This document shows, one piece after another, positions 1 through 11,745 of a DNA stretch of 11,745 nt. Positions within the stretch are counted from its first letter, which is position 1; every line of letters begins with the position of its first letter. The DNA comes from Chloroflexota bacterium. Lineage in GTDB: Bacteria; Chloroflexota; Anaerolineae; Promineifilales; Promineifilaceae. A program made the translations under genes and the position numbers. Location: contig QQUD01000448.1 in the NCBI GenBank assembly GCA_008501785.1, positions 1 through 11,745 of the forward strand. The letters run 5' to 3'. The notes under the pieces are model-generated. The model did not search any database, was not told the DNA's origin, and was given only the letters and a program-made list of their open reading frames with translations.

Positions 1-253
1 CCGTGTCGGATAAACCAGGATGCGTCCTGTTCCTGGCTGTGATGCAGGTGACAATAACAGATTTGTGTAATGAACAGATTGAGAAGGGGAGAGGACAGCG
101 AATATTAGGAATCAACGAATGGGGGAGGCAACAACGGATGGAGAAAAGAATGGATGGAAGAACGGCCGTATCTGTCCGAGGTTATTTTTTTGTGTTGCGG
201 TGGTTGTGGGAGGAGCGCCCGCGCAATCGTCAATCTAAAATCGTAAATCGTAA
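1..253. other. Left-edge region without a supportable gene
   Basis: I see no credible gene here. An open frame from a GTG at 3 runs through to 269, but its translation shows no family pattern, no convincing ribosome binding site and a low-complexity basic end that is simply the translated heptad repeat. The region holds one copy of the ACGGCCGT palindrome (162-169) and a 7-nt-period repeat near its right end. It could be the intergenic tail of a gene lying left of the window. Confidence 0.5.
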
Positions 254-258
254 ATGTT
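224..258. repeat. Heptameric tandem repeat (AATCGT type)
   Basis: Five consecutive 7-nt units can be read here: CAATCGT, CAATCTA, AAATCGT, AAATCGT, AAATGTT. The exact 7-nt period and the degenerate A/T-rich units match the pattern of the repeats at 4095-4157 and 9697-9717, although the unit sequence differs. It ends 8 bases before the -35 box of the promoter for the DUF2294 gene. Confidence 0.7.
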
Positions 259-265
259 TTCGTGC

Positions 266-293
266 TTGACAAATCACCACACCGCTCTAAACT
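266..293 (+). promoter_or_regulatory. Predicted sigma-70-type promoter of the DUF2294 gene
   Basis: A perfect -35 box TTGACA (266-271) is followed after 16 nt by TAAACT (288-293), which matches 4 of 6 bases of TATAAT. Transcription would begin at about 297-302, at or just before the ATG at 302. No Shine-Dalgarno sequence is visible, so the mRNA may be leaderless or nearly so. Confidence 0.55.
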
Positions 294-301
294 TCAATGC
301 T

Positions 302-670
302 ATGAAGAATATGACACAGGGGCAGGCGGAAGCTGAATTTACACGGGCGATTGTCCAGTTTGAGAAAGAATATCTGGGGCGGGGGCCGGTGGATGCGCGT
401 ACTTTTTTCATTAAGGACATGATTTTGGTGCGGCTGCAAGGGTTGATGACGCCTGCGGAGAATAAATTGGCTGAAAGTGGTGACGGCCGTTCCCTGATCA
501 AAGAAACACGCCGCCAACTGTTCGAATCCTCTCTCCCAATGCTGAAAGAAATCGTAACTAGCGTTACCGGCACAACGCTGATCAGCCTGCACACCGACAT
601 GAGCACCGTGACTGGCGAGCGGATTATTGTGTTTACGGTTGACAAAGACTTGACGAAGATTTTTCGTTAG
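302..670 (+). CDS. DUF2294 family protein
   Basis: Small soluble protein of 122 residues when started at ATG 302. The family pattern is clear: an N-terminal EFTRAIVQFEKEYLGRGP segment, then FIKDMILVRLQGLMTPAE, an ETRRQL helix, and a C-terminal SLHTDMSTVTGERIIVFT strand region. These match the DUF2294 family as I know it from Bacillota and cyanobacteria. Its biochemical role is not established. There is no signal peptide or membrane segment, so it should be cytoplasmic. The frame stays open upstream to an ATG at 254, but that extension would overlap the promoter and the heptad repeat and lacks family similarity. An ATG at 311 is also possible. A tiny ATG-CTA-TGA reading frame (297-305) overlaps the start. 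One ACGGCCGT copy (483-490) is read as Asp-Gly-Arg. It lies upstream of a diverged relative and the Mrp operon, which suggests a link to ion homeostasis; that link is inference. Confidence 0.85.
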   Translation: MKNMTQGQAEAEFTRAIVQFEKEYLGRGPVDARTFFIKDMILVRLQGLMTPAENKLAESGDGRSLIKETRRQLFESSLPMLKEIVTSVTGTTLISLHTDMSTVTGERIIVFTVDKDLTKIFR

Positions 671-708
671 CAGCAGATGAATTGATAATGTTTTGTCGAT
701 ATAAATCA

Positions 709-737
709 TTGACCTTCGTAACCAATCATTGTATAAA
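709..737 (+). promoter_or_regulatory. Strong predicted sigma-70-type promoter
   Basis: TTGACC (709-714), a 17-nt spacer and TATAAA (732-737) give five of six matches in each box with ideal spacing. Transcription should start near 744. The transcript would run through two terminator-like hairpins before the gene at 1056, so this promoter probably makes a roughly 310-nt regulatory leader. Confidence 0.7.
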
Positions 738-783
738 AGGTCTAGCAATCAGGGTTTTAGGTAGGTTGCAAATGGTTTGATAG

Positions 784-816
784 AGCCTTTGCAAAGGACA
801 GAAAGCAAAGAGGGCT
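784..816 (+). promoter_or_regulatory. Possible antiterminator helix, leader element 1
   Basis: AGCC (784-787) can pair with GGCT (813-816), and CTTTG (787-791) with CAAAG (806-810). These helices would form a hairpin of 7-8 pairs with a 2-nt bulge. The 3' strand includes the bases that start the terminator stem at 814, so the two structures exclude each other. This is a paper fold only. Confidence 0.35.
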
Positions 817-856
817 GACATTTCACATTACTAAAATGCGGGATGCCAGCTTTTTT
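814..856 (+). terminator. Terminator-like hairpin, leader element 1
   Basis: GCTG (814-817) pairs with CAGC (847-850), and CAT/ATG pairs (819-821 with 843-845) extend the stem past one mismatch. The stem is followed immediately by six T residues (851-856). The stem is short and the loop large, so strength is uncertain, but the T tract and its position about 110 nt after a good promoter fit an attenuator. Confidence 0.4.
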
Positions 857-880
857 ATTTCCTGAATTAATTGAACGAAA

Positions 881-896
881 CTCTTCGGCAGAAGAG
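881..896 (+). promoter_or_regulatory. Short perfect hairpin in the leader
   Basis: CTCTTC (881-886) and GAAGAG (891-896) form six perfect pairs around a GGCA tetraloop. It lies between the two terminator-like hairpins and could be a structural helix of a second leader element. Confidence 0.5.
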
Positions 897-902
897 TAAC
901 TA

Positions 903-938
903 TCGGCAGACAGGGCAAAAGGTAAATTTCAAAGCCGA
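903..938 (+). promoter_or_regulatory. Possible switching helix, leader element 2
   Basis: TCGGC (903-907) can pair with GCCGA at 934-938, or instead with GCCGA at 974-978, which is the 5' arm of the following terminator hairpin. The 3' terminator arm TCGGC (1007-1011) can also pair back to GCCGA at 934-938. These alternatives would allow ON and OFF conformations. No match to a riboswitch class that I can recognise by eye. Confidence 0.35.
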
Positions 939-971
939 ATTTATTTGGCAGGAATAGACAAGTTGCAAAGT

Positions 972-1015
972 AAGCCGACATCGGAATGGATCGACTCTAT
1001 TCGATGTCGGCTTTT
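972..1015 (+). terminator. Strong terminator-like hairpin upstream of the 1056 gene
   Basis: AAGCCGACATCG (972-983) is perfectly complementary to CGATGTCGGCTT (1002-1013). The stem ends in four T residues (1012-1015). A GAAT/ATTC pairing (984-987 with 999-1002) can replace the last stem pair and extend the helix. The start codon follows 40 nt later, so the hairpin would terminate or attenuate transcription into that gene. Confidence 0.65.
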
Positions 1016-1055
1016 CGTTTGCATATTTAATTGACAACCCATTTGGAGATGTGAC

Positions 1056-1415
1056 ATGACTCAATTGGCGCAGGCAGACAACCAAACATTGGCAAAAATA
1101 TCGAAGGGCTTGCTGACCGCGTGGCAGCAAAATCATGGCGCGCAAGATGGCAAGGTATATGCGATTAAAGGGTCTAGCTGCATTTTGGTTTTTATTGAAG
1201 ATGCGTTTACCAAGGCTGAAATGCATTTAGCTGAGCAAGATAATGGCAACAATCAGACATTGAATCGTTATGTGCAGAGCTTGTTGGCGCATATTTGCTA
1301 CGAGCAAAAAGGGTTTGTGGCGCAACAGCTTGACGCACGCGTTGTGTCTACGAGTGTGAGTGCAGATACTGTTGCTGGATGGGCGATGTGTATTTTTAAA
1401 CTGACAGATTCGTGA
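1056..1415 (+). CDS. Divergent DUF2294-like protein
   Basis: Small soluble protein of 119 residues. GGAG (1045-1048) sits 7 nt before the ATG, which fixes the start. It is not obviously annotated by one strong motif, but it lines up by eye with the DUF2294 protein at 302-670. IKGSSCILVFIED followed by TKAEMHLAE corresponds to IKDMILVRLQG and TPAENKLAE; a helical middle follows, then STSVSADTVAG and a final hydrophobic strand in place of LHTDMSTVTGE. The N-terminal GRGP segment is lost, and the Arg-rich ETRRQL helix is replaced. It contains two Cys residues in the second half and no membrane segment. Position between two attenuator-like leaders, and 260 bases before mrpA, suggests it is co-regulated with the Mrp operon. 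Function unknown; the family assignment is by visual alignment. Confidence 0.75.
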   Translation: MTQLAQADNQTLAKISKGLLTAWQQNHGAQDGKVYAIKGSSCILVFIEDAFTKAEMHLAEQDNGNNQTLNRYVQSLLAHICYEQKGFVAQQLDARVVSTSVSADTVAGWAMCIFKLTDS

Positions 1416-1521
1416 TGAAATGGGTGTCGATTGTGCGGATTGCTTAAATTTTTGAGAAAACGTTACTAAATTTCGTGAATTATTGCCGATGGTATTTTGA
1501 CCTTCCAAGGATAAAAATAAA

Positions 1522-1592
1522 GCTGGCTTTTGCAAAGTCATTTCGCATGACCTTGTCAAATTTGAAAAAGAATGATTGACAGCCGTGCCAGC
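1522..1592 (+). promoter_or_regulatory. Candidate riboswitch-like leader of the Mrp operon
   Basis: GCTGGC (1522-1527) is the perfect complement of GCCAGC (1587-1592), closing a 71-nt domain. Inside it are two further helices: GTCAT/ATGAC (1537-1541 with 1547-1551, loop TTCGC) and TGTCAA/TTGACA (1554-1559 with 1576-1581). This is a closing helix with a two-arm junction. The 3' strand of the closing helix is also the 5' arm of the terminator at 1588-1627, so forming the domain would block termination. I do not recognise it as a known riboswitch class. No clear promoter was found between 1416 and 1521; TTGCTT at 1440-1445 with TACTAA at 1464-1469 is only weak. Confidence 0.5.
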
Positions 1593-1639
1593 GTATCCCA
1601 GGAAGGATAGACCTTGGATAACGCTGGTTTTTATTTTTT
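1588..1639 (+). terminator. Terminator-like hairpin just before mrpA
   Basis: CCAGCGT (1588-1594) pairs with ACGCTGG (1621-1627), then ATCC (1595-1598) with GGAT (1616-1619) past a single bulged A. AGG/CCT (1600-1602 with 1612-1614) can extend the helix. The stem is followed by TTTTTATTTTTT (1628-1639). It is the best intrinsic-terminator shape in the left half of the window. It lies 36 nt before the start of a long operon rather than after a gene end, so attenuation is the likely use; termination of the preceding gene is the alternative. Confidence 0.7.
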
Positions 1640-1675
1640 AGGTCGTTGAGCGAAATTTCAGGCGTTAAGGTGAAG

Positions 1676-4090
1676 ATGTTGATGAGTATTGAATTGTTTG
1701 TAATCGTTTTTTCCGGGTTTGGGCTGGCGCTGGTGATGGCGTTGGTGCATCGCTGGTTGGGACGTGCGATTGGTTGGGTGGCGGCGCTGCTGCCGCTGGG
1801 CATTTTTATTGCGCTGGCACTGCAATTACCGCACATTGGGGAAGGTGAACCACTACGCACGACGGTAGATTGGGTGCCAAGCCTGGGGATTTCGCTTTCG
1901 TTTTATGCGGATGGCTTGTCACTGCTGCTGGCGCTGATTGTGAGTGGTGTGGGCGCATTGATTTTGATTTACGGAGGTGGTTATCTGGCAGGGGATCGGC
2001 AAATCGGCCGTTTTTACACCATCATCCTCGTTTTTATGGCGTCCATGTTGGGCGTGGTGCTGGCAGATAATATTTTCTTGCTGTTTGTGTTTTGGGAATT
2101 GACCAGCATCAGCTCGTATCTGCTGATTGGGTTTAAACATGAATACGAATCGTCGCGGGATGCGGCGCGGCAGGCATTGCTGGTGACTGGTTCGGGTGGT
2201 TTGGCCCTGCTGGCAGGGTTGATTTTGTTAGGCATTGCTGGTGGTAGTTGGGAGTTTTCTTCGCTGCTGGGGCAAGGTGATGCGATTCAGGCCAGCCCGC
2301 TGTTTTTGCCTGCATTGATTTTGATTTTAGCCGGTGCATTTACGAAGTCGGCACAGTTTCCATTCCACTTTTGGCTGCCCAATGCGATGGCAGCACCAAC
2401 GCCTGTAAGCGCGTATTTGCATTCGGCGACGATGGTGAAGGCTGGTGTTTATTTGCTGGCACGAGTTAGCCCGATTTTTGCCGGGACAGATGTTTGGTTC
2501 GCCGCACTGGTGATTGTCGGTGGAGTGACGGCGCTACTGGGCGCGTGGCTTTCCTGGCAGCAGACGGATTTGAAGCGGATTTTGGCGTATTCAACGGTGA
2601 GTGCGCTGGGAACGCTGGTGCTGTTTTTGGGGATTGGGAGCAAGGTGGCGGTGAAAACGGCCATTCTCTTTCTCCTCGTCCATTCGCTCTACAAAGGTGC
2701 GCTGTTTATGGCGGCTGGAGCCATTGACCACGAAACTGGCACGCGTGATGTGACAAAATTGGGCGGTTTGGCGCGATTGATGCCGCTGACGCTGGCTGGT
2801 GTAGGGTTGGCGGCTGTATCGATGGCTGGTTTGCCACCGCTGCTTGGGTTTATTAGCAAAGAGTTGATGTACGAAGCGACGTTGGAAGCTCAAGGCTGGT
2901 CATTACCATTGACGATGCTGGCGCTAGCAACGAATGTGTTTATGGTGGCAGCGGCAGCGATTGTGCTAATCGTACCGTTTTTTGGTAAGCGGCAAAATCC
3001 AAAAGAATTGCACATTCACGAAGCACCTATCAGCATGTGGTTGGGACCGGTTGTGCTGGGGGGTGTGGCGCTGCTGACTGGTTTGTTTTCGAATGCACAC
3101 TGGTTTGCGGAAGATCTGATTGGTAGGGCGGTAACGGCTGTTTACAATACCCCTGTTGAAGTTCACCTCGGTCTGTTCCACGGGTTTACCCCCATGCTGC
3201 AGCTGAGCATTGTGACGGTGACGCTGGGTGTGGTGGTGTTTGCGCTGCACCAGCGGTTACGTCCGGTTGTTGTGGGAGTGGATACGGCCGTTTCCCGCAT
3301 TGGTCCTGAGCAGTGGTACAAACACGGGCTGGATGGCCTGCTTAGTTTTGCTGGCGGCGTCACGAAGCTGCTGCAAAATGGCTTTCTTCGCTACTACATT
3401 TTGTTTGTAATGGGAACGGTAGTAGTGCTGGTAGGCGTGACGCTGTTGCGTCAAGACGCGATTGTGCTGCCAGCAATCGAAACGCCGGTGCGTTTTGTGG
3501 ACGCGGTGATTGCGCTGACGATGATTGTGGGCACGATGATTGTGGTGAAGGCGCGGTCCCGACTGTATGCGGTGGCTGGGCTGGGGCTGGTTGGGTATGG
3601 CATGGCAATGCTGTTCATTTTGTTTAGCGCACCTGACTTGGCGATGACACAGTTTGCGATTGAGACGCTGACGGTCATTTTGTTTGTGCTGGTGCTGTTC
3701 CGGCTGCCCAAATTTGAAACGATTAGCATTAAGGCTACCCACTACCGTGATGCATTGGTGTCAATTGCGGTGGGGACGATGATGGCTTCTGTCGTGCTGG
3801 CGGCAAAAGCGTTTAATGCGCCAACTCCGCTGTCTGACTTTTTTGCTGAGAACAGTTACACACTCGCCCAAGGCCGCAACATTGTGAATGTAATTCTGGT
3901 CGATTTTCGCGGCGCAGACACGATTGTGGAAATCACTGTGCTAACAGTTGCCGCAATTGGCGTTTATGGGCTGCTGCGATCACAGAAAGTGGAAGAGCGT
4001 GAGGTGGTGGAAACGGCCGTTTCCGAACAAACTTCACAAAACGGCCGTGTGGTAAGAGACCCTATTCCGATGGGTGAGGCGACAGATTGA
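1676..4090 (+). CDS. mrpA: Mrp antiporter subunit A (MrpA/MnhA)
   Basis: Largest membrane subunit of the multisubunit Na+(K+)/H+ antiporter, related to NuoL of complex I. It is 804 residues from ATG 1676, close to the usual size of about 800. The Proton_antipo_M core carries the conserved Glu in FWELTS (E141) and Lys in [15 protein letters not shown] (K224). These match the essential Glu/Lys pair known from Bacillus MrpA. The C-terminal MrpA extension (DUF4040-type) is intact, with [15 protein letters not shown] (about 651-665). The frame is open back to a TTG at 1646, but that codon lies 7 nt after the terminator T tract and has no ribosome binding site. AAGG at 1667-1670 serves ATG 1676, or the in-frame ATG 1682. 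The hydrophilic C-terminal tail holds two palindrome copies (4013-4020, read Thr-Ala-Val; 4041-4048, read Asn-Gly-Arg) and looks expendable. First gene of the operon. Confidence 0.96.
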
Positions 4091-4093
4091 AAT

Positions 4094-4157
4094 GGGGAAT
4101 AGGGCTTAGGGAATTGGGATTGGATTCCAGCCCCTAGCCCCAACCCCCAATCCCCAA
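4094..4157. repeat. Heptad inverted repeat with G-quadruplex potential
   Basis: Nine 7-nt units fill the gap between mrpA and mrpB. The first are G-rich (GGGAATA, GGGCTTA, GGGAATT, GGGATTG), then a pivot (GATTCCA), then C-rich units (GCCCCTA, GCCCCAA, CCCCCAA, TCCCCAA). The halves are imperfect reverse complements, so the mRNA could fold into a long hairpin. The plus strand at 4094-4118 has four G runs separated by 4-nt loops, and the minus strand has four runs of four or more G with 2-3-nt loops. Both strands therefore meet the usual G-quadruplex pattern. The AAAGG that serves mrpB (4156-4160) overlaps the end of the array. Confidence 0.8.
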
Positions 4158-4168
4158 AGGTTTTTAAT

Positions 4169-4636
4169 ATGCGATCTTTAATTTTAACAACAGCAACGAA
4201 ATACTTAATGCCCCTCTTGATATTATTTTCAATTTTCATCTGGCTGCGGGGGCACAATGAGCCGGGTGGTGGGTTTGTGGGCGGTCTAATTGCGGCGTCG
4301 GCGTATGTGCTGTATGGCATCGCGTTTGGTATTCAGAAAGCAGAGGAACTGCTGCGGATTCCACCGCGAATGCTAATTGGCATTGGGCTGTTTTTGGCGC
4401 TGTTTAGCGGATTGATTCCCGTTTTGTTTACGGGCGAACCATTTATGACCGGTGTTTGGGGTACACAGGAATACCCCATTTTTCACAAGCTGGGTACGCC
4501 GGTTATGTTTGATACTGGTGTTTATTTGACGGTATTGGGCGTTACGCTGTGGATTATGTATTCATTGGCCGAAGAATATTTGCAGCCAGGGAAAAATGCC
4601 CTGATTGCGCTTAGTCCGTCGGAGTTTGAAGAATAA
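4169..4636 (+). CDS. mrpB: Mrp antiporter subunit B (MrpB/MnhB)
   Basis: Small membrane subunit of the Mrp complex, 155 residues with about four predicted membrane spans. The family signature is present: [12 protein letters not shown] near residues 29-40, after a short N-terminal helix. Length is slightly above the usual 140-145 because of a short acidic C-terminal tail. AAAGG (4156-4160) is 8 nt from the ATG. It follows mrpA after a 78-nt gap, by far the largest in the operon; all later gaps are at most 3 nt or are overlaps. Translation of B-G could therefore be tuned separately from A through the heptad hairpin; this is inference. Confidence 0.94.
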
Positions 4637-4639
4637 ATT

Positions 4640-4990
4640 ATGGAACTACTACTAGCCATTGTAATTGGCGTTCTCTATGCAGGGGGCGTTTACATGATGA
4701 TGCGGCGCAGTTTGGTGAAGCTGATTTTAGGATTGGCCCTGCTGGGGCACGCATCGAACTTGCTGCTGTTTTCGATGGGTGATTTGGTGGCTGGCGTGCC
4801 GCCGTTGATTGCTGAAGGGGCCAAAACAATTTCAGCTCCATTTGCCGATCCGCTGCCGCAAGCGCTTATTTTGACGGCGATTGTGATTGGGTTTGGCACG
4901 CAGGCGTTTGCGATTGTGCTGATTAAACTCGTCTATCAGGCTGTGAATACAGATGATATTGACAAGATTAAAAAGACGGATGGCTCGTAA
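4640..4990 (+). CDS. mrpC: Mrp antiporter subunit C (MrpC/MnhC)
   Basis: NuoK-like subunit of 116 residues, close to the family's usual length. Three hydrophobic segments are visible. Conserved patterns are [20 protein letters not shown] in the first half and [20 protein letters not shown] in the second. It begins 3 nt after mrpB, and its stop codon overlaps the mrpD start (TAATG), so translational coupling is expected. The ribosome binding site is weak, which fits coupling. In complex I, NuoK helps form the ion path between the antiporter-like subunits, and MrpC is expected to do the same next to MrpD. Confidence 0.94.
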
Positions 4991-6495
4991 TGCGAACAGA
5001 ATTGTTGATTTTACTACCAATTTTGATTCCATTGTCAACGGCGATTTTGTCGGTGATGGTGTGGCAGAATGTGCGCCAGCAGCGGGTGATTAGCCTGGTG
5101 GGATCGGTTGGGTTGTTGGGTGCGGCGGTGGGATTGTTTACGGCCGTTTACTCTCAAAACACCCCGCTTGTCGTGCAAATGGGCAATTGGGCCGCGCCGT
5201 TTGGCATTACGCTGGTGGCCGATTTGTTTAGTGCCATTATGGTTGTGCTGGCCGGGTTGATGGGAATGGCTGTCGCCATCTATGCTATCGCCGATATTGA
5301 TGCCCGTCGTGAACGATTGGGTTTTCATCCCCTCTATCACATTTTGCTGATGGGTGTTAGCGGTTCTTTCCTTACCGGCGACATTTTTAACCTCTATGTC
5401 TGGTTTGAAGTGATGTTGATTGCGTCCTTTGTGCTGCTGGCGCTTGGCGGTGATAGAAACCAGCTTGAAGGGGCCATCAAGTACATGACGCTCAATTTGT
5501 TGGCGTCGGCTGCATTTTTAGCAGCGGTGGGCATTTTGTATGGCCTAACGGGCACACTAAACATGGCAGATTTGCGGCAAGGGCTGGCAAATGCGCCTCA
5601 AGGGTTGGTACTGACACTGGCGATGCTGTTTTTGGTGGCGTTTGGCATTAAAGCGGCGTTGTTTCCACTGTTTGGTTGGCTGCCTGCGGCTTATCATACG
5701 CCGCCTACAGCCATATCTGCCATCTTCGCCGGTTTGCTGACAAAGGTGGGCGTGTATGCCATCATTCGCGTTTTTACACTGCTGTTTGTGCAGGATGTGA
5801 GCTTTACCCATGCGCGGGTGCTGCTGGTCATTGCCGGATTGACAATGGTCACGGGTGTTTTCGGAGCCGCGACTCAGACTGATTTTCGGCGCATTTTGTC
5901 ATTCCACATTGTGAGCCAAATTGGATACATGATTATGGGGTTGGCGCTGTATACGCCGTTGGCTTTGGCTGGTGCGATTTTTTACATCAGCCATCACATT
6001 ATTGTAAAAACCAACCTGTTCCTTGTGAGCGGTGTTGTGAATCGCACGCAAGGCAGCTTTCAATTAAAGAAGCTGGGTGGTTTGTACCGGGCACAGCCCA
6101 TGTTGGCTGTCCTCTTTTTAATCCCAGCTTTGTCGCTGGCAGGTATTCCACCCCTGTCAGGCTTTTGGGCCAAGTTTACCTTGGTAAGAGCCGGGTTAGA
6201 AACTGAACAATATTTGATTGTTGCCACGTCCTTATTTGTGGGATTGTTGACGCTTTATTCGATGACCAAGATTTGGAATGAGGCGTTTTGGAAAGCACAA
6301 CCGGAGGCATATCAGCAAACTGAAGAAGTCCCACGTCGGGATTGGCTGCTGCGGGTTGCGCCGGTGGGTGTGTTGGCGGCTTTTACGTTAATCATTGGGT
6401 TTTTCGCTGAGCCTTTGTTTCAGCTATCGATGATGGTGGCCGAGCAATTGCTCAATCCGAGTGTGTATGTAACGGCCGTTTTGCAAGGAGGATAA
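4990..6495 (+). CDS. mrpD: Mrp antiporter subunit D (MrpD/MnhD)
   Basis: Second antiporter-like subunit, homologous to NuoM/NuoN, 501 residues with about 14 membrane spans. The Proton_antipo_M core is complete: the conserved Glu in [13 protein letters not shown] is E140, and the Lys in [16 protein letters not shown] is K221. These correspond to the essential TM5 Glu and TM7 Lys of Bacillus MrpD. It also has [12 protein letters not shown] and [13 protein letters not shown], which are typical of the family. The start ATG overlaps the mrpC stop. Palindrome copies at 5140-5147 (after the first membrane helix) and 6472-6479 (four codons before the final GG residues) both read Thr-Ala-Val. The end of the gene also encodes the AAGGAGG ribosome binding site of mrpE. 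Confidence 0.96.
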
Positions 6496-6496
6496 C

Positions 6497-6973
6497 ATGT
6501 TTCGTTTAAATATTGCGTTGAGTGTGGCCTGGGTGGCCTTAATTGGTGAACTTTCCGTTGAACGATTTGTGGAAGGTTTTGTGTTGGTGGCGCTTACGTT
6601 AGGCATCACACAGCATTTTATTGGGCAGCAGTTGAGTTATTTAAACCGTATCAAACGAGTTACCTCCTTTGTGCTGTACTTCTTAAAGGAGTTGGTTGTG
6701 TCGAGTTGGCGCGTGGCGGTTAGTGTGTTGTCACCTAATTTGAACAATATTCGTCCGGCTGTGGTTGCCATTCCGCTGGATGTGAAAACAGATGAAGAAA
6801 TCACGCTGCTGGCAAACGTGATCACGCTGACTCCCGGCACGCTGTCATTGGATGTATCGGCAGACAAAAAGACGCTTTATGTACATACGTTTAATTTGGA
6901 CAGCGTGGAAGCCTTTCGCGCCGAGATCAAACAAGGGTTTGAACGGCGTATTCATGAGGTGATGCAGTGGTAA
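6497..6973 (+). CDS. mrpE: Mrp antiporter subunit E (MrpE/MnhE)
   Basis: Subunit E, 158 residues, with two or three N-terminal membrane segments and a soluble C-terminal domain. The family signature [18 protein letters not shown] (about residues 103-120) followed by a TLYVH strand is intact. A perfect AAGGAGG (6485-6491) sits 5 nt before the ATG, inside the end of mrpD, and is the strongest ribosome binding site in the operon. MrpE is needed for full antiport in many species, though not always essential. The gene overlaps mrpF by 7 nt. Confidence 0.94.
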
Positions 6974-7233
6974 CAATTGGTCTTGCCTTGAGTGTGGCAT
7001 TAACTTTATTGGCAGTCACGATTGTGCTGTCTTTGGTGCGCGTGGTGCGGGGTCCAAGCCTGCCTGATCGGGTGATTGCGTTGGATTTGCTGATTTCGGT
7101 GGCAATTGCGATGACAGTCGTGTATGCGATGGTAACGGACCAGCCTGTTTTTATTGATGTAGCGACGGCGTTGGCACTGATTTCATTTTTAGGCACAGTG
7201 GCATTTGCACGGTATATCGACTTGAGGAGGTAG
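6967..7233 (+). CDS. mrpF: Mrp antiporter subunit F (MrpF/MnhF)
   Basis: Small membrane subunit of 88 residues with three hydrophobic segments. The family signature RGPSLPDRVIALDLL is clear at about residues 28-42, and FIDVATALALISFLGTVAFA follows in the last helix. The proposed GTG start at 6967 overlaps the end of mrpE by 7 nt and gives the usual family length. The next gene starts 3 nt after its stop. Confidence 0.93.
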   Translation: MVTIGLALSVALTLLAVTIVLSLVRVVRGPSLPDRVIALDLLISVAIAMTVVYAMVTDQPVFIDVATALALISFLGTVAFARYIDLRR

Positions 7234-7236
7234 GCT

Positions 7237-7650
7237 ATGCGTGAACTGATTAGCTTGCTGTTTGTGTTTGCGGGCGTCTTTTTTGTGCTGGTGGCGGGCA
7301 TTGGCATGGTGCGGATGCCGGATATTTTTCTGCGCATGTCGGCGGCGACGAAGGCGGCGACGTTGGGATTGGGTTTGATTTTGGTGGGAACGGCCGTTTA
7401 CTTCTGGGACCTAAGCATTTCTGCACGTGCAGTTGCCACCATAATTTTTGTGCTGCTGACAGCGCCCGTCTCGGCGCACATGATTGCCCGCGCAGCCTAT
7501 TCAGATGGCGTTGAACTCTGGGACAAAACTCAGGTTGACCAGCTAAAGGGACGTTACACGACAGACCAGGAAACGTTAGCCAGCTTTCCTGTTTCTGATG
7601 ATGTGGTAGAAAAAGAAGATGAGGGGGAGAAGAAAATAATTAATTTGTGA
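7237..7650 (+). CDS. mrpG: Mrp antiporter subunit G (MrpG/MnhG)
   Basis: Last subunit of the Mrp complex, 137 residues with three membrane helices. The signature GMVRMPDIFLRMSAATKAATLG is present in two adjoining blocks (about residues 23-44), followed by a helix with GTAVYFWDL and a third with TAPVSAHMIARAAY. GAGGAGG (7224-7230) lies 6 nt before the ATG. The C-terminal tail (about residues 100-137) is hydrophilic and acidic and longer than in typical MrpG. The palindrome at 7390-7397 supplies the Thr-Ala-Val of the second helix. The stop codon lies inside the 15-bp inverted repeat that closes the operon. Confidence 0.94.
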   Translation: MRELISLLFVFAGVFFVLVAGIGMVRMPDIFLRMSAATKAATLGLGLILVGTAVYFWDLSISARAVATIIFVLLTAPVSAHMIARAAYSDGVELWDKTQVDQLKGRYTTDQETLASFPVSDDVVEKEDEGEKKIINL

Positions 7651-7723
7651 ATTGTTGAAATGGCGAATGGTTAATGATGGGTTGCCAGCATAACACTTTC
7701 ATTAATAATTCAACAATTCACAA
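7645..7723. repeat. Long inverted repeat at the end of the mrp operon
   Basis: TTGTGAATTGTTGAA (7645-7659) is the exact reverse complement of 7709-7723. A second pairing, TTAATGA (7671-7677) with TCATTAA (7699-7705), lies inside, leaving a 21-nt loop. TTCAACAATT recurs directly after it at 7725-7734. The units GTGAATT, TGGCGAA and TGGTTAA on the left arm again suggest 7-nt spacing. There is no T tract, so it is not a typical intrinsic terminator. It may protect the 3' end of the mRNA, or be a small non-autonomous repeat element. Confidence 0.75.
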
Positions 7724-7875
7724 GTTCAACAATTAAATACTTTACGTCAAAACACAGAAAACATTCGTCTTTCCGCTCAGGACCACGCGTCGTTAGCAAG
7801 TTTGTCTTTCCCCTACTCTAAATTCTCCACAATTAGCTTTTCCCCTCATTTTGGGTATGATTCTTCTAATTCAGA

Positions 7876-7905
7876 TTGACATATAAACTGAATGAATTTT
7901 ATTAA
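7876..7905 (+). promoter_or_regulatory. Predicted promoter of the CPA2 antiporter / PII-like unit
   Basis: A perfect TTGACA (7876-7881) is followed after 18 nt by TATTAA (7900-7905), a moderate -10 box. A start near 7912 would give a 5' leader of about 120 nt containing the two hairpins at 7923-7967 and 7983-8016. Confidence 0.5.
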
Positions 7906-7922
7906 TTTATCGAAAAATAATA

Positions 7923-7967
7923 GCGGTATGATGCATCTGTTTGCATGATTAACCAACATCATATCGC
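7923..7967 (+). promoter_or_regulatory. Leader hairpin upstream of the CPA2 antiporter gene
   Basis: GCGGTATGATG (7923-7933) pairs with CATCATATCGC (7957-7967), giving eleven pairs including one G-T wobble, around a 23-nt loop. AACC in that loop (7951-7954) could pair with GGTT just downstream (7969-7972) to form a pseudoknot. The same GGTT could instead pair with AACC at 7983-7986, which is the 5' arm of the next hairpin. Confidence 0.5.
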
Positions 7968-7982
7968 AGGTTATTTCTTAGC

Positions 7983-8016
7983 AACCGTTGAAAAACGAAA
8001 GTTTTTACTGGTTTTT
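7983..8016 (+). terminator. Terminator-like hairpin before the CPA2 antiporter gene
   Basis: AACCGT (7983-7988) pairs with AC-GGTT (8007-8013, one bulge), and AAAAAC (7991-7996) pairs with GTTTTT (8001-8006) around a GAAA tetraloop. It ends in a run of T residues (8012-8016) only 17 nt before the start codon. The stem is A/T-rich, so terminator strength is uncertain; blocking of translation is another possibility. Confidence 0.45.
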
Positions 8017-8033
8017 ATAGTTGTTGAATAAAT

Positions 8034-9272
8034 ATGGCTGAACAATTTTTGAATTTGATTTTGGCCCTTTCGATTGTCATCTTTGTGGCGAAGGCGAGCG
8101 GGTATTTGAGCACAAGACTAGGACAACCCGCCGTGTTAGGGGAGCTACTTGCGGGTTTGATATTGGGGCCGACGGTTTTGGATATGTTGCATGTGTGGCC
8201 TGTATTTTCACATGATGAACTACTGCCAGAAGTGTTAACGATGATGGGCGAACTCGGTGTCATTTTTCTGATGATGCTGGCCGGTTTAGAACTTCATTTA
8301 TCAGAGTTGCTGAGTTCAGGCAAGGTTGCATCCTTGTCCGGTGTGTTGGGTGTGGTTGTACCTCTCTTGTTGGGGTGGGGAACGGCCGCTTTGTTCGGCG
8401 TTAGCACATCAGAGGCCATTTTTATTGGGCTGGCACTATCCGCAACCAGCGTCAGTATTTCGGCACAGACATTGATGGAATTGGGCGTGCTGCGGAGTCG
8501 TGTGGGGTTGGGCATGTTGGGCGCGGCCGTTTTTGATGATGTGTTGGTGATTTTGATGTTGTCCATTGCAACAATCACCTTTGGTACGGGTGGTGGAACG
8601 GTTGGCGGCATTTTGTTAACTGTTTTGTTCATGATCATTTATCTGATTGTGGCATCAGTATTTGGCATTCGCCTGCTGCCGCGACTGCTTTCGTATGTAG
8701 ACCGGCTGCCAATTAGCCAGGGAACGCTGGCATTTACGTTGGTGACGTTGCTTTTGTACTCATGGGCGGCAGAAGTATTGGGCGGCATGGCCTCGATCAC
8801 CGGAGCATTTTTGGTAGGGTTATTCCTGGGCCGAACGCCGTATAAAACCAAGATTGAACGTGGTGTAGCAGCGTTGGCATACGGCTTTTTTGTCCCTATC
8901 TTTTTTGTGAATATCGGTCTGGAAGTAGATTTGCTGGCCGTGAGCGGCAGTGCTATTTGGTTTGCGCTGCTGCTTGTGATTGTGGCTGTAATTAGCAAAA
9001 TTGTAGGCAGTGGTGTCGGCGCAATAATGGGTGGATTTACAATGCGTGAATCAATCCAACTTGGTATTGGGATGGTATCACGTGGCGAAGTTGGCTTAAT
9101 TGTGGCTTCTTTTGCATTAGCAGAAGGGTTACTTTCGTTGGCAAATTTTGCTATTGTTGTATTCATGGTGATTGTGGCGACTTTGGTGACGCCGCCATTA
9201 CTCCGCCTTTCGTTTGCCTCCCCAGGTGCGCCGCAAGCGCCTGAGGAGAGCGTGCGGGAACAGGTGACGTGA
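8034..9272 (+). CDS. CPA2-family cation/H+ antiporter, NapA-like, without RCK domain
   Basis: Integral membrane antiporter of the CPA2 superfamily (Na_H_Exchanger fold), 412 residues with about 12-13 spans. RLGQPAVLGELLAGLILGP (about 28-46) and LMMLAGLELHLSEL (79-92) are the usual N-terminal motifs. The unwound-helix motif LSATSVSISAQTL is at 135-147. GAAVFDDVLVIL carries an Asp-Asp pair at D168-D169. In NhaA and NapA the equivalent pair marks electrogenic Na+/H+ exchange, whereas KefB/KefC have Gln-Asp. The protein ends soon after the last helix and has no TrkA-N/TrkA-C domain, so it is not a complete Kef-type channel. Near-palindrome copies at 8382 and 8523 lie in frame, the latter coding for the Ala-Ala-Val just before the Asp pair. 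The PII-like gene follows after 38 nt. Na+ versus K+ preference cannot be read from the sequence. Confidence 0.92.
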   Translation: MAEQFLNLILALSIVIFVAKASGYLSTRLGQPAVLGELLAGLILGPTVLDMLHVWPVFSHDELLPEVLTMMGELGVIFLMMLAGLELHLSELLSSGKVASLSGVLGVVVPLLLGWGTAALFGVSTSEAIFIGLALSATSVSISAQTLMELGVLRSRVGLGMLGAAVFDDVLVILMLSIATITFGTGGGTVGGILLTVLFMIIYLIVASVFGIRLLPRLLSYVDRLPISQGTLAFTLVTLLLYSWAAEVLGGMASITGAFLVGLFLGRTPYKTKIERGVAALAYGFFVPIFFVNIGLEVDLLAVSGSAIWFALLLVIVAVISKIVGSGVGAIMGGFTMRESIQLGIGMVSRGEVGLIVASFALAEGLLSLANFAIVVFMVIVATLVTPPLLRLSFASPGAPQAPEESVREQVT

Positions 9273-9310
9273 TGTTTCTAATGAAATCTTTTTATAGAGG
9301 GATATGAATT

Positions 9311-9685
9311 ATGAATTACATGGTCATGCTTATTTTACACAGAGTGGATGAATGCACTAATATTTTGGATGCCTGGGATGAAGAAGGGGTGGGTGGTATC
9401 ACAATTTTAGAAAGCTCTGGTATGGGGCGTGAGCGCCGCTTGAAAACGGAGCGGGATATTCCGCTGATTCCTTCTCTAGCCGATTTTTTGCGGACACCAG
9501 AGGAAAGACATCGCACGATATTTACTGTGGTTGAGGATGAATCGTGGGTGGACCGGTTGATCGAAGTCACAGAAAATATTTTGGGTGATATGGAAAACCC
9601 GAAAAATGGGGTGATTTTTGTGCTGCCGGTGGCGCGAGCGCATGGGTTAGCTGGTGGGCAGGCGCGGGCGAAGAAGGGGAAGTAG
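9311..9685 (+). CDS. PII-like signalling protein linked to the antiporter
   Basis: Small soluble protein of 124 residues with a PII (GlnB) layout. An N-terminal strand MVMLILHRVDE leads to a helix ILDAWDEEGV and then GGITILESSGMGR, which matches the PII pattern GI/VxGxTVxExxGFGR. After a loop come strand FTVVEDES, helix DRLIEVTENILG and strand GVIFVLPVARAHGL, matching the second half of PII. The T-loop lacks the Tyr of the uridylylation site and is instead basic, then Pro/Leu-rich. The C-terminal tail is Lys/Gly-rich. PII-like proteins such as SbtB bind adenine nucleotides and control a neighbouring transporter, so control of the CPA2 antiporter is a reasonable inference. AGAGGG (9296-9301) is 9 nt before ATG 9311; ATG 9320 is an alternative. 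The start codon lies in a tandem ATGAATT duplication (9304-9317). Confidence 0.82.
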   Translation: MNYMVMLILHRVDECTNILDAWDEEGVGGITILESSGMGRERRLKTERDIPLIPSLADFLRTPEERHRTIFTVVEDESWVDRLIEVTENILGDMENPKNGVIFVLPVARAHGLAGGQARAKKGK

Positions 9686-9696
9686 AATAATATATA

Positions 9697-9717
9697 GTGA
9701 ATTGTGAATTGTGAATG
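9697..9717. repeat. Heptameric tandem repeat (GTGAATT)
   Basis: Three units in a row: GTGAATT (9697-9703), GTGAATT (9704-9710), GTGAATG (9711-9717). It directly abuts the palindrome-pair terminator. It resembles the ATGAATT pair at 9304-9317 and the GTGAATT start of the repeat at 7647. Confidence 0.8.
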
Positions 9718-9754
9718 AACGGCCGTTTCTGCTTGGTTGGAAACGGCCGTTTTT
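9718..9754 (+). terminator. Intrinsic terminator built from two ACGGCCGT palindromes
   Basis: AACGGCCGTTTC (9718-9729) pairs perfectly with GAAACGGCCGTT (9740-9751) around a 10-nt loop, followed by T residues to 9754 and a further TTT. It lies 32 nt after the stop of the PII-like gene, between convergent units. The T tract is on the plus-strand side only. Each arm is itself a palindrome, so the DNA could also form smaller cruciforms. Confidence 0.85.
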
Positions 9755-9770
9755 GTTTACGCTTGCACCC

Positions 9771-10442
9771 TTAATTTATTTTACGACGCTGCCATTCAAG
9801 GCCCAATCCGGTGAGCAAGAATGTAGCACCAATGCCTGCTATTCCAATGAACCAAATTGTGTTTGCAGCGGGTTGATTGGCAGCAGCTCCAGAATCGGGG
9901 TTCAATATTGATGCGTTTGCCTCTGTGATCGTGGTTGTGCCATTATTTGTGACGATGATTGCATTGGCACTTCCTTCTGCAACCGGGTTCGCAATTTGAC
10001 TTGCCGCGGCAGCGATACAGAAGTTGATGCTGTTATGATCAAGCGTTCCATCTTTGTAAACTGGCACATAGATTGGATTTTGTGATGTTACAATCATATT
10101 GGTCTCAGGGATCGCCATCACTTCCCAATTACTTTCGCCGGCCGCAACAAGTCCAAATGTGCCATCACTCCCAGTTGTTAAAGGGATGATTGTGGTGGCA
10201 TCACTGCTCGTGAACTGCATATTTACATTGGCAACAGGTTGTTCACCCTCAACGCCACTGTTTATACAATTGCCGTCTCCATTCACATCTAAATAAACAC
10301 TGCCAAAAATAGACCCTCGCGGTTCATTTTGATTCGATGCGACATTCGTCGGTGTTGGCCTAGGTGTTTGTGCCAGAACGGGTGCTGCGACCATAAGCCA
10401 TAAACATATAATTGCAAATAGGGAATGCCATTTAATCTTCAA
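9771..10442 (-). CDS. Secreted SdrD-B-like domain protein with C-terminal membrane anchor
   Basis: Protein of 223 residues. A signal peptide (about 1-24, ending PVLA before QTP) is followed by a short Pro/Thr stretch. Residues about 43-110 resemble an SdrD B-like/Cna-B-type beta-sandwich: GSIFGSVYLDVNGDGN, with Asp/Asn residues spaced as in a calcium loop (D52, N54, D56), then GVEGEQPVANVNMQF. A linker rich in Ala/Asn/Thr leads to a C-terminal membrane helix (about 195-214) and the basic end RRKIN. This resembles a surface anchor, but no LPXTG is present. The start is a TTG (10440-10442). An AAGGAGGAG that encodes the last residues of the upstream gene lies 6 nt before it, which implies translational coupling. 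Function is structural or adhesive at best guess. Confidence 0.8.
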   Translation of the reverse strand: MKIKWHSLFAIICLWLMVAAPVLAQTPRPTPTNVASNQNEPRGSIFGSVYLDVNGDGNCINSGVEGEQPVANVNMQFTSSDATTIIPLTTGSDGTFGLVAAGESNWEVMAIPETNMIVTSQNPIYVPVYKDGTLDHNSINFCIAAAASQIANPVAEGSANAIIVTNNGTTTITEANASILNPDSGAAANQPAANTIWFIGIAGIGATFLLTGLGLEWQRRKIN

Positions 10443-10443
10443 A

Positions 10444-11745
10444 CTACTCCTCCTTCGTGGGTGTTGGTGTTGATATAGTAAGTGTTGGTGTCAATACAGT
10501 TGTTGTCGGTGACGATACAGACGGTGTTGGTGTTGATGTAGATGATGTGGAAGTTGATACAGTTGGTGTAGGCGTGATTGGGCTAATCGGTGTAGGGGTG
10601 TTCCGTGGCTCATCGCTATCAATTTGGTTTAATGCTCCATTACTGATGAATGTACCCGATGCAGTGAGCGAGATTGGCCCTAGCGTATTATTGTTTTCGT
10701 TTGGACATTCATTAACTGTATTATCAGTATCCGCCTGTGCATACAGTTGGTGAGCGCCACCGGTAAAGACGTATGGCGTACTGTATGTTTTGCTTGTGCC
10801 AGCGTTTAGATCGTCTCCTTGAATGCCCCAGCCAATATTACCTGCTACCATGACCTGCGGTACACGGTCGACGTAGAAGTCAAGGAAGAAGTTGTTGCCA
10901 TAAGCAACGTTTTTGCTTCCTTGGTTCCGCAGCGTGATAAATACAGTTGCGGTTTCTCCGGCAACCGGGTTGGCTGGCTCGACACGTATTTCTGTGACTA
11001 CCAGATCAATGTCTGTTGATGTACAAGAAACAGGCGTGGGTGTCGGTGTTATCGGTGTTGGTATTGGTGTTGGTGTTGACGAGTTGTTGGTCATTATCAT
11101 TGGTAAGTAGACGAATGATTCCTCTTTACCAATGGGACCAATGGTAGTTATGTTGGTTGCAGAATCCGTGATGGCATTGTCGGTAATGGAAGTAACGGTA
11201 ACAACAGTTCTATCTACTGTATCATCATCGGCCGTTCCCGGAATATTGATGCGTACTGAAATATCGGCTGTGTCGCCTTTTGCTAATGTGATCCTTTCGG
11301 TTGACATGATGATTGGCCAGCCCTGGGTAGAAACGGCCGTAATCAGATAAGAGTCTGTCGCGTTGCCTGTATTTTCAATCGTATGCAGATATTGGACCGT
11401 CGTCCCAGCTTCAGCCGTTTTGCTGCCATCTGGATAAATATCTACACCGAGCGTTGCCACAGGGCCGTTAATATTGGTCGTGTTGACGGCATTGTCATTT
11501 GCTGAACTATCAGTTAATGATTTGGCAACCACATGCATTATGTCTTGCCCATCAACCGCGTCAGACGGGACAGTAAGGGAAACCACGATGGTTTCAGTCA
11601 TACCCGAAACGAGTGTGAGATCATCAGGTTCGACTGTTTCCCAACCATTGCTACTACTAGCAATAAAAGTAAACCTATCCGTTCCATTGCCTGTATTGGT
11701 TATAACATGACTGTAGGTGATGACATTACCAGCATCAGCCGTACC
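10444..11745 (-). CDS. Cell-surface protein with NEW3-like repeats and CARDB domain (5' partial)
   Basis: The frame is open to the window edge, so the N-terminus is missing; 433 residues are visible. Two tandem domains of about 108-residue period occupy roughly 1-100 and 108-205. They share TADAG/TAEAG, ITNTGN/IENTGN, a central NGW/QGW and a final run of Thr/Asp-rich strand residues. They resemble NEW3/DUF11-type beta-sandwiches. Next come VYLPMI (about 212-217), a Pro/Thr linker (224-238), a CARDB domain (about 243-361, bracketed by two Cys residues that may form a disulfide) and a long Ser/Thr/Pro tail (382-430). There is no membrane anchor at the C-terminus. VYLPMI-like motifs before Pro/Thr linkers are common in Chloroflexota secreted proteins, in my recollection. 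One palindrome copy (11333-11340) reads Thr-Ala-Val within the second repeat. The downstream anchored protein is probably co-expressed. Confidence 0.85.
   Translation of the reverse strand, partial: GTADAGNVITYSHVITNTGNGTDRFTFIASSSNGWETVEPDDLTLVSGMTETIVVSLTVPSDAVDGQDIMHVVAKSLTDSSANDNAVNTTNINGPVATLGVDIYPDGSKTAEAGTTVQYLHTIENTGNATDSYLITAVSTQGWPIIMSTERITLAKGDTADISVRINIPGTADDDTVDRTVVTVTSITDNAITDSATNITTIGPIGKEESFVYLPMIMTNNSSTPTPIPTPITPTPTPVSCTSTDIDLVVTEIRVEPANPVAGETATVFITLRNQGSKNVAYGNNFFLDFYVDRVPQVMVAGNIGWGIQGDDLNAGTSKTYSTPYVFTGGAHQLYAQADTDNTVNECPNENNNTLGPISLTASGTFISNGALNQIDSDEPRNTPTPISPITPTPTVSTSTSSTSTPTPSVSSPTTTVLTPTLTISTPTPTKEE

What the first reader, a model, noticed from the sequence alone, without database searches (positions are those of the whole stretch)
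162..11340. HIP1-like highly iterated octamer palindrome, ACGGCCGT
Eleven exact copies in 11.7 kb are roughly 60 times the chance expectation, and several flanks extend to a 16-bp palindrome. The distribution ignores gene boundaries, as with the HIP1 octamer (GCGATCGC) of cyanobacteria, but the sequence is unrelated and the host appears to be Chloroflexota. Possible roles are a methylation or repair mark, a chromosome-organising site or an uptake signal. All roles are inference.
Basis: partly seen in the sequence, partly recalled or inferred. Interest (0 to 1): 0.78.

Follow-up and report, generated by a model that had tools for sequence, protein, structure and literature searches.

The report
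Chloroflexota genome-wide iterated DNA palindrome
An eight-letter palindrome is scattered thousands of times through many genomes of one order of Chloroflexota bacteria and, where compared, is kept almost unchanged at its positions, perhaps as the target of a DNA-marking enzyme, much like the still unexplained HIP1 motif of cyanobacteria.

Summary
Confirmed, and it reaches far beyond the window. ACGGCCGT occurs 11 times in 11.7 kb (shuffle mean 0.17). The host genome is not held, but relatives form an order of 56 searchable genomes; 28 carry 2,887-15,176 copies. Among 396 class genomes, none outside the order exceeds 430. Between genomes 82-93% identical, 89-100% of sites are kept, against 28-61% of GC-matched octamers, in all codon phases and between genes; conservation ends at the octamer edge. 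Other genomes of the order iterate TCGGCCGA, GCGGCCGC, TGCCGGCA or hexamer CGGCCG. A DUF1156-like DNA methyltransferase is in 29 of 31 CGGCCG-octamer genomes and 0 of 6 hexamer genomes, but also in 14 of 18 genomes with none of these. In the GCGGCCGC genome it adjoins a NotI-family endonuclease; NotI cuts GCGGCCGC. Best reading: a HIP-class element outside cyanobacteria whose octamer is probably the target of a NotI-type methyltransferase and is kept as a genome-wide mark. Methylation and function are untested.

The parts
162..169 (.). HIP octamer ACGGCCGT, upstream of the ORFs taken as genes
483..490 (.). HIP octamer inside MpsC-domain ORF 254-670, codon phase 1
3284..3291 (.). HIP octamer inside MrpA-type ORF 1646-4090, phase 0; the same aligned position carries ACGGCCGT in G034 and G036
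4013..4020 (.). HIP octamer, phase 0, centre of the only perfect 16-bp palindrome (4009-4024)
4041..4048 (.). HIP octamer, phase 1, near the 3' end of ORF 1646-4090
5140..5147 (.). HIP octamer inside ORF 4990-6495, phase 0
6472..6479 (.). HIP octamer inside ORF 4990-6495, phase 0, palindrome extends to 10 bp
7390..7397 (.). HIP octamer inside ORF 7237-7650, phase 0, palindrome extends to 10 bp
9719..9726 (.). HIP octamer, intergenic, palindrome extends to 10 bp
9743..9750 (.). HIP octamer, intergenic, 24 bp after the previous one, palindrome extends to 12 bp
11333..11340 (.). HIP octamer inside minus-strand CARDB-type ORF 10444-11745, phase 0

Best explanation
The octamer is a highly iterated palindrome (HIP) of one Chloroflexota order. 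SHOWN: it is genome-wide in 28 of 56 genomes of the order; in the regions compared, individual sites are kept with exactly eight bases conserved; other genomes of the order iterate other palindromes, most with the same CGGCCG core. INFERRED: the octamer is the recognition site of a DUF1156-like DNA methyltransferase (open frames of about 650-735 aa) that is widespread in the order. By its NotI-family neighbour in the GCGGCCGC genome it is NotI-type in specificity; in the four ACGGCCGT loci whose neighbours I scanned it has no NotI-family partner. Marked octamers then act as a mark of own DNA that is read by DNA-processing machinery; a candidate reader is NurA-HerA, encoded beside the enzyme in the TCGGCCGA genomes. 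Losing a site is therefore disfavoured, and a change in the enzyme's specificity would move the motif to a new dialect.
For: Copies and density. Site conservation: (51 of 57 sites kept between G012 and G010 at 82% identity against 0.29 of GC-matched octamers; 14 of 17 between G008 and G012 at 72% against 0.14). Dialects. Methyltransferase in 26 of 28 ACGGCCGT, 2 of 2 TCGGCCGA, 1 of 1 GCGGCCGC, 0 of 6 hexamer and 0 of 1 TGCCGGCA genomes. NotI-family gene adjacent to it in the GCGGCCGC genome, whose model matches solved NotI structures best (Foldseek E 1e-10 to 7e-10, TM 0.65-0.72 by query, rmsd 5-6 A). NurA beside the enzyme in 3 of 3 T- and G-dialect loci; HerA found in the two where that gene was scanned. 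Enzyme tree: the ACGGCCGT label needs 3 changes, shuffled mean 11.4.
Against: The methyltransferase is also in 14 of 18 genomes with no such palindrome (octamer vs none: Fisher p=0.17) and absent from two ACGGCCGT genomes, G048 and G049. The octamer/hexamer contrast may be one evolutionary event: four of the six hexamer genomes group together in the MrpA tree. Only one genome shows the NotI pairing. Two distant NotI-family endonucleases pair with other methyltransferase types, and the genes preceding two distant homologs of this methyltransferase are not NotI-like. In G036 an HNH-domain gene lies two genes from the enzyme, so it may not be solitary there. No species tree was made, so vertical inheritance is assumed. 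No methylation data were available. No NurA or HerA was among the 10 neighbours scanned in four ACGGCCGT loci, and I had no genome searches left to look elsewhere.
Confidence: 0.5

Rival explanations
1. Mutational by-product, as in Elhai's model: methylation-directed mismatch repair turns near-misses of a methylated core into HIP sites, with no selected function.
For: A cognate methyltransferase rule is described for cyanobacterial HIPs (PMC4390886). Transversion near-misses at positions 2 and 3 are depleted about 2-5 fold, as a ratchet would give.
Against: Sites already formed are kept at all eight bases far above background. The model needs G next to the methylated C, which the CGGCCG core already supplies if its inner C is marked, so it does not predict a fixed outer A/T. 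Transition near-misses at position 2 and all at position 4 are near expectation.
Confidence: 0.15
2. DNA-uptake or recombination signal maintained by molecular drive, with lineage dialects like those known (recalled) for Neisseriaceae uptake sequences.
For: Density, scatter through genes, near-random spacing (CV 1.02), dialects sharing a core; the three longest HIP-free stretches seen look like mobile or defence DNA; HIP-dense contigs filed as viral.
Against: The uptake sequences of Pasteurellaceae and Neisseriaceae are stated not to be palindromes (PMC1939737, passages). The NotI-family neighbour matching the dialect is unexplained by uptake. No competence gene was tested.
Confidence: 0.15
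3. Binding site of an abundant chromosome-organising protein, unconnected with methylation.
For: A palindrome kept in all codon phases; weak G-rich flanks at -3/-4 and C-rich at +3/+4.
Against: Spacing is near Poisson; bases next to the octamer are not conserved above background, apart from a slight rise at -3 (0.88 vs 0.84). The NotI coincidence would be accidental.
Confidence: 0.15
4. Codon, composition or local clustering artefact.
For: 8 of 11 window sites are in ORFs.
Against: Reversed palindrome control 130 vs 15,031 in G010. Synonymous-codon shuffles give 119, 23 and 3.6 against 697, 424 and 185 by phase. Intergenic sites are also conserved, 14 of 15.
Confidence: 0.01

Closest known systems
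HIP1 (GCGATCGC) and alternate HIPs of cyanobacteria
   Same: GC-rich palindrome, about 1-2 per kb genome-wide, in coding and non-coding DNA; replaced by other palindromes in some genomes; deviations biased to the outer bases; a candidate cognate methyltransferase (PMC4390886; abstract, sections 2.3 and 2.5 and two of three parts of the Discussion read).
   Different: Unrelated sequence and phylum. Most alternates here share one CGGCCG core. The candidate methyltransferase is DUF1156-like and, judged by one NotI neighbour, may read the full octamer rather than an inner 4- or 6-mer.
NotI restriction-modification systems
   Same: The G051 neighbour matches Pfam NotI and solved NotI structures; its genome iterates the NotI site.
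   Different: Avoidance of restriction sites is reported for many systems (PMC4687349, abstract start in a listing); here the site has 12,040 copies. No NotI-family gene was among the neighbours scanned in four ACGGCCGT loci.
DNA uptake sequences (DUS/USS)
   Same: Density, dialects, absence from some mobile-looking stretches.
   Different: Palindromic; candidate link is a methyltransferase. Pilus and competence genes not tested.
Chi sites
   Same: Short over-represented DNA signal; Elhai raises the analogy for HIP1; NurA-HerA end-processing genes stand beside the enzyme in two genomes and NurA in a third.
   Different: Chi is asymmetric (recalled). No link of this octamer to resection was tested.

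Membership tests
HIP class (Elhai 2015) | Palindrome, at least 75% GC, grossly over-represented genome-wide | tested here: met
   ACGGCCGT is 75% GC; 34-51 times expectation in samples of 8 genomes; up to 15,176 copies. Tested in relatives; host genome not available.
HIP class (Elhai 2015) | About 500-2500 instances per million bases | tested here: met
   About 1,930-2,090 per Mb in G009-G012; 937 per Mb in the window. G019 lies below, about 440 per Mb.
HIP class (Elhai 2015) | Genomes low in one HIP may carry another | tested here: met
   TCGGCCGA, GCGGCCGC, CGGCCG and TGCCGGCA genomes; but 18 of 56 genomes show none of these strongly.
HIP class (Elhai 2015) | A methyltransferase able to modify the site in every HIP genome | tested here: inconclusive
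   Candidate in 29 of 31 CGGCCG-octamer genomes; specificity inferred from one NotI neighbour; also in 14 of 18 genomes without HIP.
HIP class (Elhai 2015) | One-base deviations biased to first and last bases | tested here: met
   Position-1 T, G and C variants 3.65, 1.80 and 0.97 times expected; 5 of 6 variants at positions 2-3 below 1, position 4 at 1.1-1.2.
HIP1 itself | Sequence GCGATCGC | tested here: not met
   The octamer is ACGGCCGT.
NotI-type restriction-modification | NotI-family endonuclease beside the methyltransferase | tested here: met
   In G051 only. Not among the other neighbours scanned, and not every neighbour was scanned.
NotI-type restriction-modification | Cleavage and methylation of the octamer | not testable with these tools
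   Needs enzymes or modification reads.
DNA uptake sequence | Preferential uptake of DNA with the motif | not testable with these tools
   Needs transformation assays.

The most novel reading that the evidence does not exclude
A restriction-type octamer methyltransferase that lost its endonuclease has become a genome-wide self-marking system, arisen independently of cyanobacterial HIP1. Its target is accumulated and defended instead of avoided. The marked octamers gate a NurA-HerA-type end-processing machine, and each retargeting of the enzyme rewrites thousands of sites, and even the amino acids they encode, into a new dialect.
Probability: 0.25. Interest if true: 0.92.

Novelty: new variant of a known kind. 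Interest (0 to 1): 0.77.

Why it matters
The function of cyanobacterial HIP1 has been open since its description in 1995 (reference seen; Elhai 2015 still calls the relation a mystery). A second, unrelated lineage with the same phenomenon, several dialects in related genomes and a candidate writer enzyme gives a comparative test: does the motif follow the methyltransferase's specificity? It also shows a restriction-type site being accumulated rather than avoided, and offers a specific sequence tag for binning genomes of this order.

Tried and rejected
Local clustering or codon bias: rejected by whole-genome counts in relatives and codon-aware controls.

A C5 methyltransferase (PF00145) as the universal partner: rejected, because no match was found in 30 of 56 genomes, 14 of them among the 28 ACGGCCGT genomes. 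One C5 enzyme is shared by hexamer genomes G001, G056 and G015, and by G040, which has no strong HIP.

No methyltransferase at all: I held this view, because G012, G019 and G048 showed only weak PF01555 matches. Searches showed that the hits of G012, G019 and G034, two of three in G036 and two of four in G018 are pieces of one long methyltransferase, so that view was wrong. G048 and G049 remain without it.

Regular spacing: not found.

NotI-family genes in viral contigs: 26 pattern matches, no relative confirmed. Sequence search of the NotI-like protein against PDB sequences found nothing; only the fold comparison did. The methyltransferase model gave weak fold matches, to Trm11 and CcrM among others, which say nothing of specificity. 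Whether the methyltransferase remnant beside the NotI gene is of an older dialect stayed open: it is 71% identical to G051's own enzyme and 62-75% to the others.

Literature: the parts of the lists shown held no paper on an iterated palindrome in Chloroflexota. Several lists were cut (for example 30 of 196), and the library lacks most subscription journals.
Full report
OBSERVATION. The 11 exact copies of ACGGCCGT are at the stated places; 200 dinucleotide shuffles gave a mean of 0.17 and a maximum of 2. With a trinucleotide model the window is about 44 times above expectation. Eight copies lie in the ORFs I took as genes and three outside them. Only one of the 11 is a perfect 16-bp palindrome, one reaches 12 bp and three reach 10 bp. 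The window carries an MrpA-type antiporter ORF, another Na+/H+ exchanger, and MpsC and P-II domains. None of the window ORFs that were scanned is a methyltransferase.

HOST AND RELATIVES. The host genome is not held. The best of 80 kept loci for the window's MrpA protein was a Chloroflexi MAG at 52% identity. That genome, G001, holds 856 copies against 12 of the reversed palindrome. Its order has 56 searchable genomes. The window's closest MrpA there is in G008 (60% identity), then G036 (58%), G034 (57%) and G017 (56%), all ACGGCCGT-rich. An MrpA tree of ten sequences does not place the window firmly. The nearest protein elsewhere is 84% identical, from an unnamed JGI contig; named relatives at 56-57% include Ca. 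Leptofilum. The order's name is not given by the tools.

GENOME-WIDE. 29 of 56 genomes carry at least 2,887 copies of ACGGCCGT. In 28 of them, up to 15,176 copies, the octamer makes up at least a third of all CGGCCG; the other, G055, has 2,982 among 19,906 CGGCCG and is counted as hexamer. G010 has 15,031 against 130 of the reversed control. Densities run from about 0.4 (G019) to 2.1 per kb. Across 396 genomes of the class, none outside the order exceeds 430 copies. In about 400 kb sampled from eight octamer genomes the motif is 34 to 51 times above a trinucleotide expectation, at 1.5 to 2.05 per kb.

DIALECTS. Other genomes of the order iterate other palindromes. TCGGCCGA: G014 9,414 and G033 7,668 copies. 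GCGGCCGC: G051 12,040. The hexamer CGGCCG with mixed flanks: G001, G015, G055, G056, G057 and G058, 19,809 to 25,568 copies against 132 to 7,284 of the reversed hexamer. TGCCGGCA, the reversed octamer: G028 3,665. The remaining 18 genomes show none of these strongly; samples of G043, G046 and G062 have a 1.6- to 2.1-fold CGGCCG excess.

SITE MAINTENANCE. Syntenic DNA of five ACGGCCGT genomes was aligned. Ten directed comparisons at 82.1-92.6% identity kept 33/33, 52/53, 52/56, 84/93, 36/39, 51/57, 51/56, 59/64, 59/64 and 40/42 sites. GC-matched octamers were kept at 0.28 to 0.61, and CGGCCG in other octamers at 0.25 to 0.63 (n 16 to 44). The comparisons share sites and are not independent. Eleven further comparisons: G034/G036 at 76% kept 6/6 and 6/7 against 0.16-0.17, and 6/6 in another locus against 0.28; G008/G012 at 72% 14/17 against 0.14; G010/G012 22/27 and 22/23 against 0.35-0.36; G038/G039 11/11 twice against 0.62-0.66, but 8/11 in another locus against 0.53; hexamers of G001 and G056 at 68% only 6/18 and 6/12 against 0.16. 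With amino acids unchanged, HIP DNA was identical in 98.8, 95.0 and 100% (n=162, 100, 44 by phase), against 25, 31 and 39% for the same residues in other codons (n=4, 176, 69) and 42-54% for GC-matched octamers; intergenic sites 14 of 15 against 35% (six overlapping genome pairs). Per base, conservation is 0.97-0.98 inside the octamer, 0.73 and 0.84 at the next two bases, 0.88 at the third, and 0.84 in the background. All three codon phases exceed synonymous-codon shuffles: 697 vs 119, 424 vs 23, 185 vs 3.6. Spacing is near random, mean 508 bp, CV 1.02, n=1,081. G at -3/-4 and C at +3/+4 are enriched, also between genes.

NEAR-MISSES. One-base variants are enriched at the outermost base (T 3.65 times, G 1.80 times expectation; C 0.97), C2 and G3 transversions are depleted to 0.21-0.53, and position 4 is at 1.1-1.2. 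This resembles the cyanobacterial pattern described in PMC4390886.

METHYLTRANSFERASE. C5 methyltransferases (PF00145) were found in only 26 of 56 genomes. Most of the weak PF01555 hits in G012, G018, G019, G034 and G036 proved to be pieces of one long protein, with PF01555 pieces and DUF1156-like similarity, an N-terminal DPMMGGGTT and a C-terminal DPPY motif (sequence). A profile search found it in 43 of 56 genomes: 26 of 28 ACGGCCGT genomes (absent G048, G049), 2 of 2 TCGGCCGA, 1 of 1 GCGGCCGC, 0 of 6 hexamer, 0 of 1 TGCCGGCA and 14 of 18 without HIP. Octamer against hexamer: Fisher p=1.2e-5, but kinship is not accounted for; octamer against none: p=0.17. In its tree of 36 sequences the dialects are clustered (4 changes for all four labels, shuffled mean 12.5), with long branches for the two TCGGCCGA sequences; no species tree was made. 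In the gene families listed for 12 compared neighbourhoods, none but the enzyme itself occurs in more than four. Ten neighbours in four ACGGCCGT loci were scanned: no NotI, NurA or HerA, but an HNH-domain gene two genes away in G036.

THE NOTI LINK. In G051 the adjacent gene is a NotI-family endonuclease (Pfam NotI, E 5.5e-11, 42.7 bits against a cut-off of 22), with 247 homologs, a few of the 120 listed named NotI. Its AlphaFold model (pLDDT 89.8) matches solved NotI structures best (3c25, 3bvq; Foldseek E 1e-10 to 7e-10, probability 1.00, rmsd 5-6 A, 15-18% identity); a PDB sequence search found nothing. NotI cuts GCGGCCGC (established knowledge), exactly the palindrome that G051 iterates. 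This gives an octamer specificity to the neighbouring methyltransferase by association; it is one case. A methyltransferase N-terminal remnant lies on the other side of the NotI gene. In G014, G033 and G051 the enzyme is followed by NurA, and in G014 and G033 also by HerA; no HerA scan was made in G051. On two plasmids NotI-family genes sit beside other methyltransferase types, and the genes preceding two distant relatives of this enzyme are not NotI-like. If one enzyme family marks all dialects, the marked base must be a cytosine, since GCGGCCGC has no adenine (inference).

INTERPRETATION. That this is a HIP-class element in Chloroflexota is well supported. That the octamer is the target of the NotI-type methyltransferase is likely but unproven. 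Why sites are retained is inference: I favour a self mark read by DNA-processing enzymes, with uptake drive, a chromosome protein and a mutational ratchet as rivals. Elhai's G-methylC model (PMC4390886; abstract, sections 2.3 and 2.5, and parts 1 and 2 of 3 of the Discussion read) explains accumulation but not a fixed outer A/T around a core that already supplies GC. An m4C methyltransferase for GGCC with effects on replication and repair is known in Synechocystis (PMC6560206, abstract read), a parallel to the GGCC core only.

LIMITS. The host's own genome was not counted. Genes were called as long ORFs. 

Noticed in passing
L261, L314 (both IMG/VR 3300033417_000002), L294, L257, L248: Contigs filed as viral carry ACGGCCGT at 2.8-3.7 per kb, denser than the chromosome samples; they were picked by a pattern of paired octamers, which favours dense ones. 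L261 encodes FtsK/SpoIIIE-like, ParA-like and transglycosylase/endolysin-like proteins, so plasmid or phage is open.
   Followed up: partly
L155:10625-17864, L142:9164-14204, L159:12914-19728: The three longest HIP-free stretches seen (5.0-7.2 kb; the last is cut by its contig end) hold what look from their sequences like conjugation ATPase, NACHT-type NTPase and IS3 transposase genes, as expected of recently acquired DNA; no family scan was made.
   Followed up: partly
L152:8284-8364, also 9216-9308, 13170-13230, 18039-18124: Dispersed repeats of about 50-95 bp that hit many places, often on both strands, in G009-G013: MITE- or REP-like families, apparently unrelated to the octamer.
   Followed up: no
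G009-G012 coding sites: In-frame Thr-Ala-Val tripeptides in the aligned regions are almost all HIP-encoded (176 against 7 not, summed over overlapping pairs), suggesting that the DNA motif shapes protein sequence.
   Followed up: no
G015, G051, G048 whole genomes: The reversed hexamer GCCGGC is strikingly rare (132, 51 and 483 copies in 4.1, 8.0 and 6.6 Mb), as if avoided.
   Followed up: no
L090 (G001), L088 (G056), L109 (G015), L089 (G040): A C5 methyltransferase (66-76% identical) is shared by three hexamer-dialect genomes and by G040; it may be a CGGCCG or GGCC enzyme, specificity unknown.
   Followed up: partly
G033:C1:577110-579033 (L403): The TCGGCCGA-dialect methyltransferase appears split over two frames, either a frameshift or an assembly error.
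   Followed up: no
window 10444-11745: Minus-strand CARDB-type protein with Thr/Pro-rich linkers that create 21-bp DNA repeats at 10460-10572.
   Followed up: no
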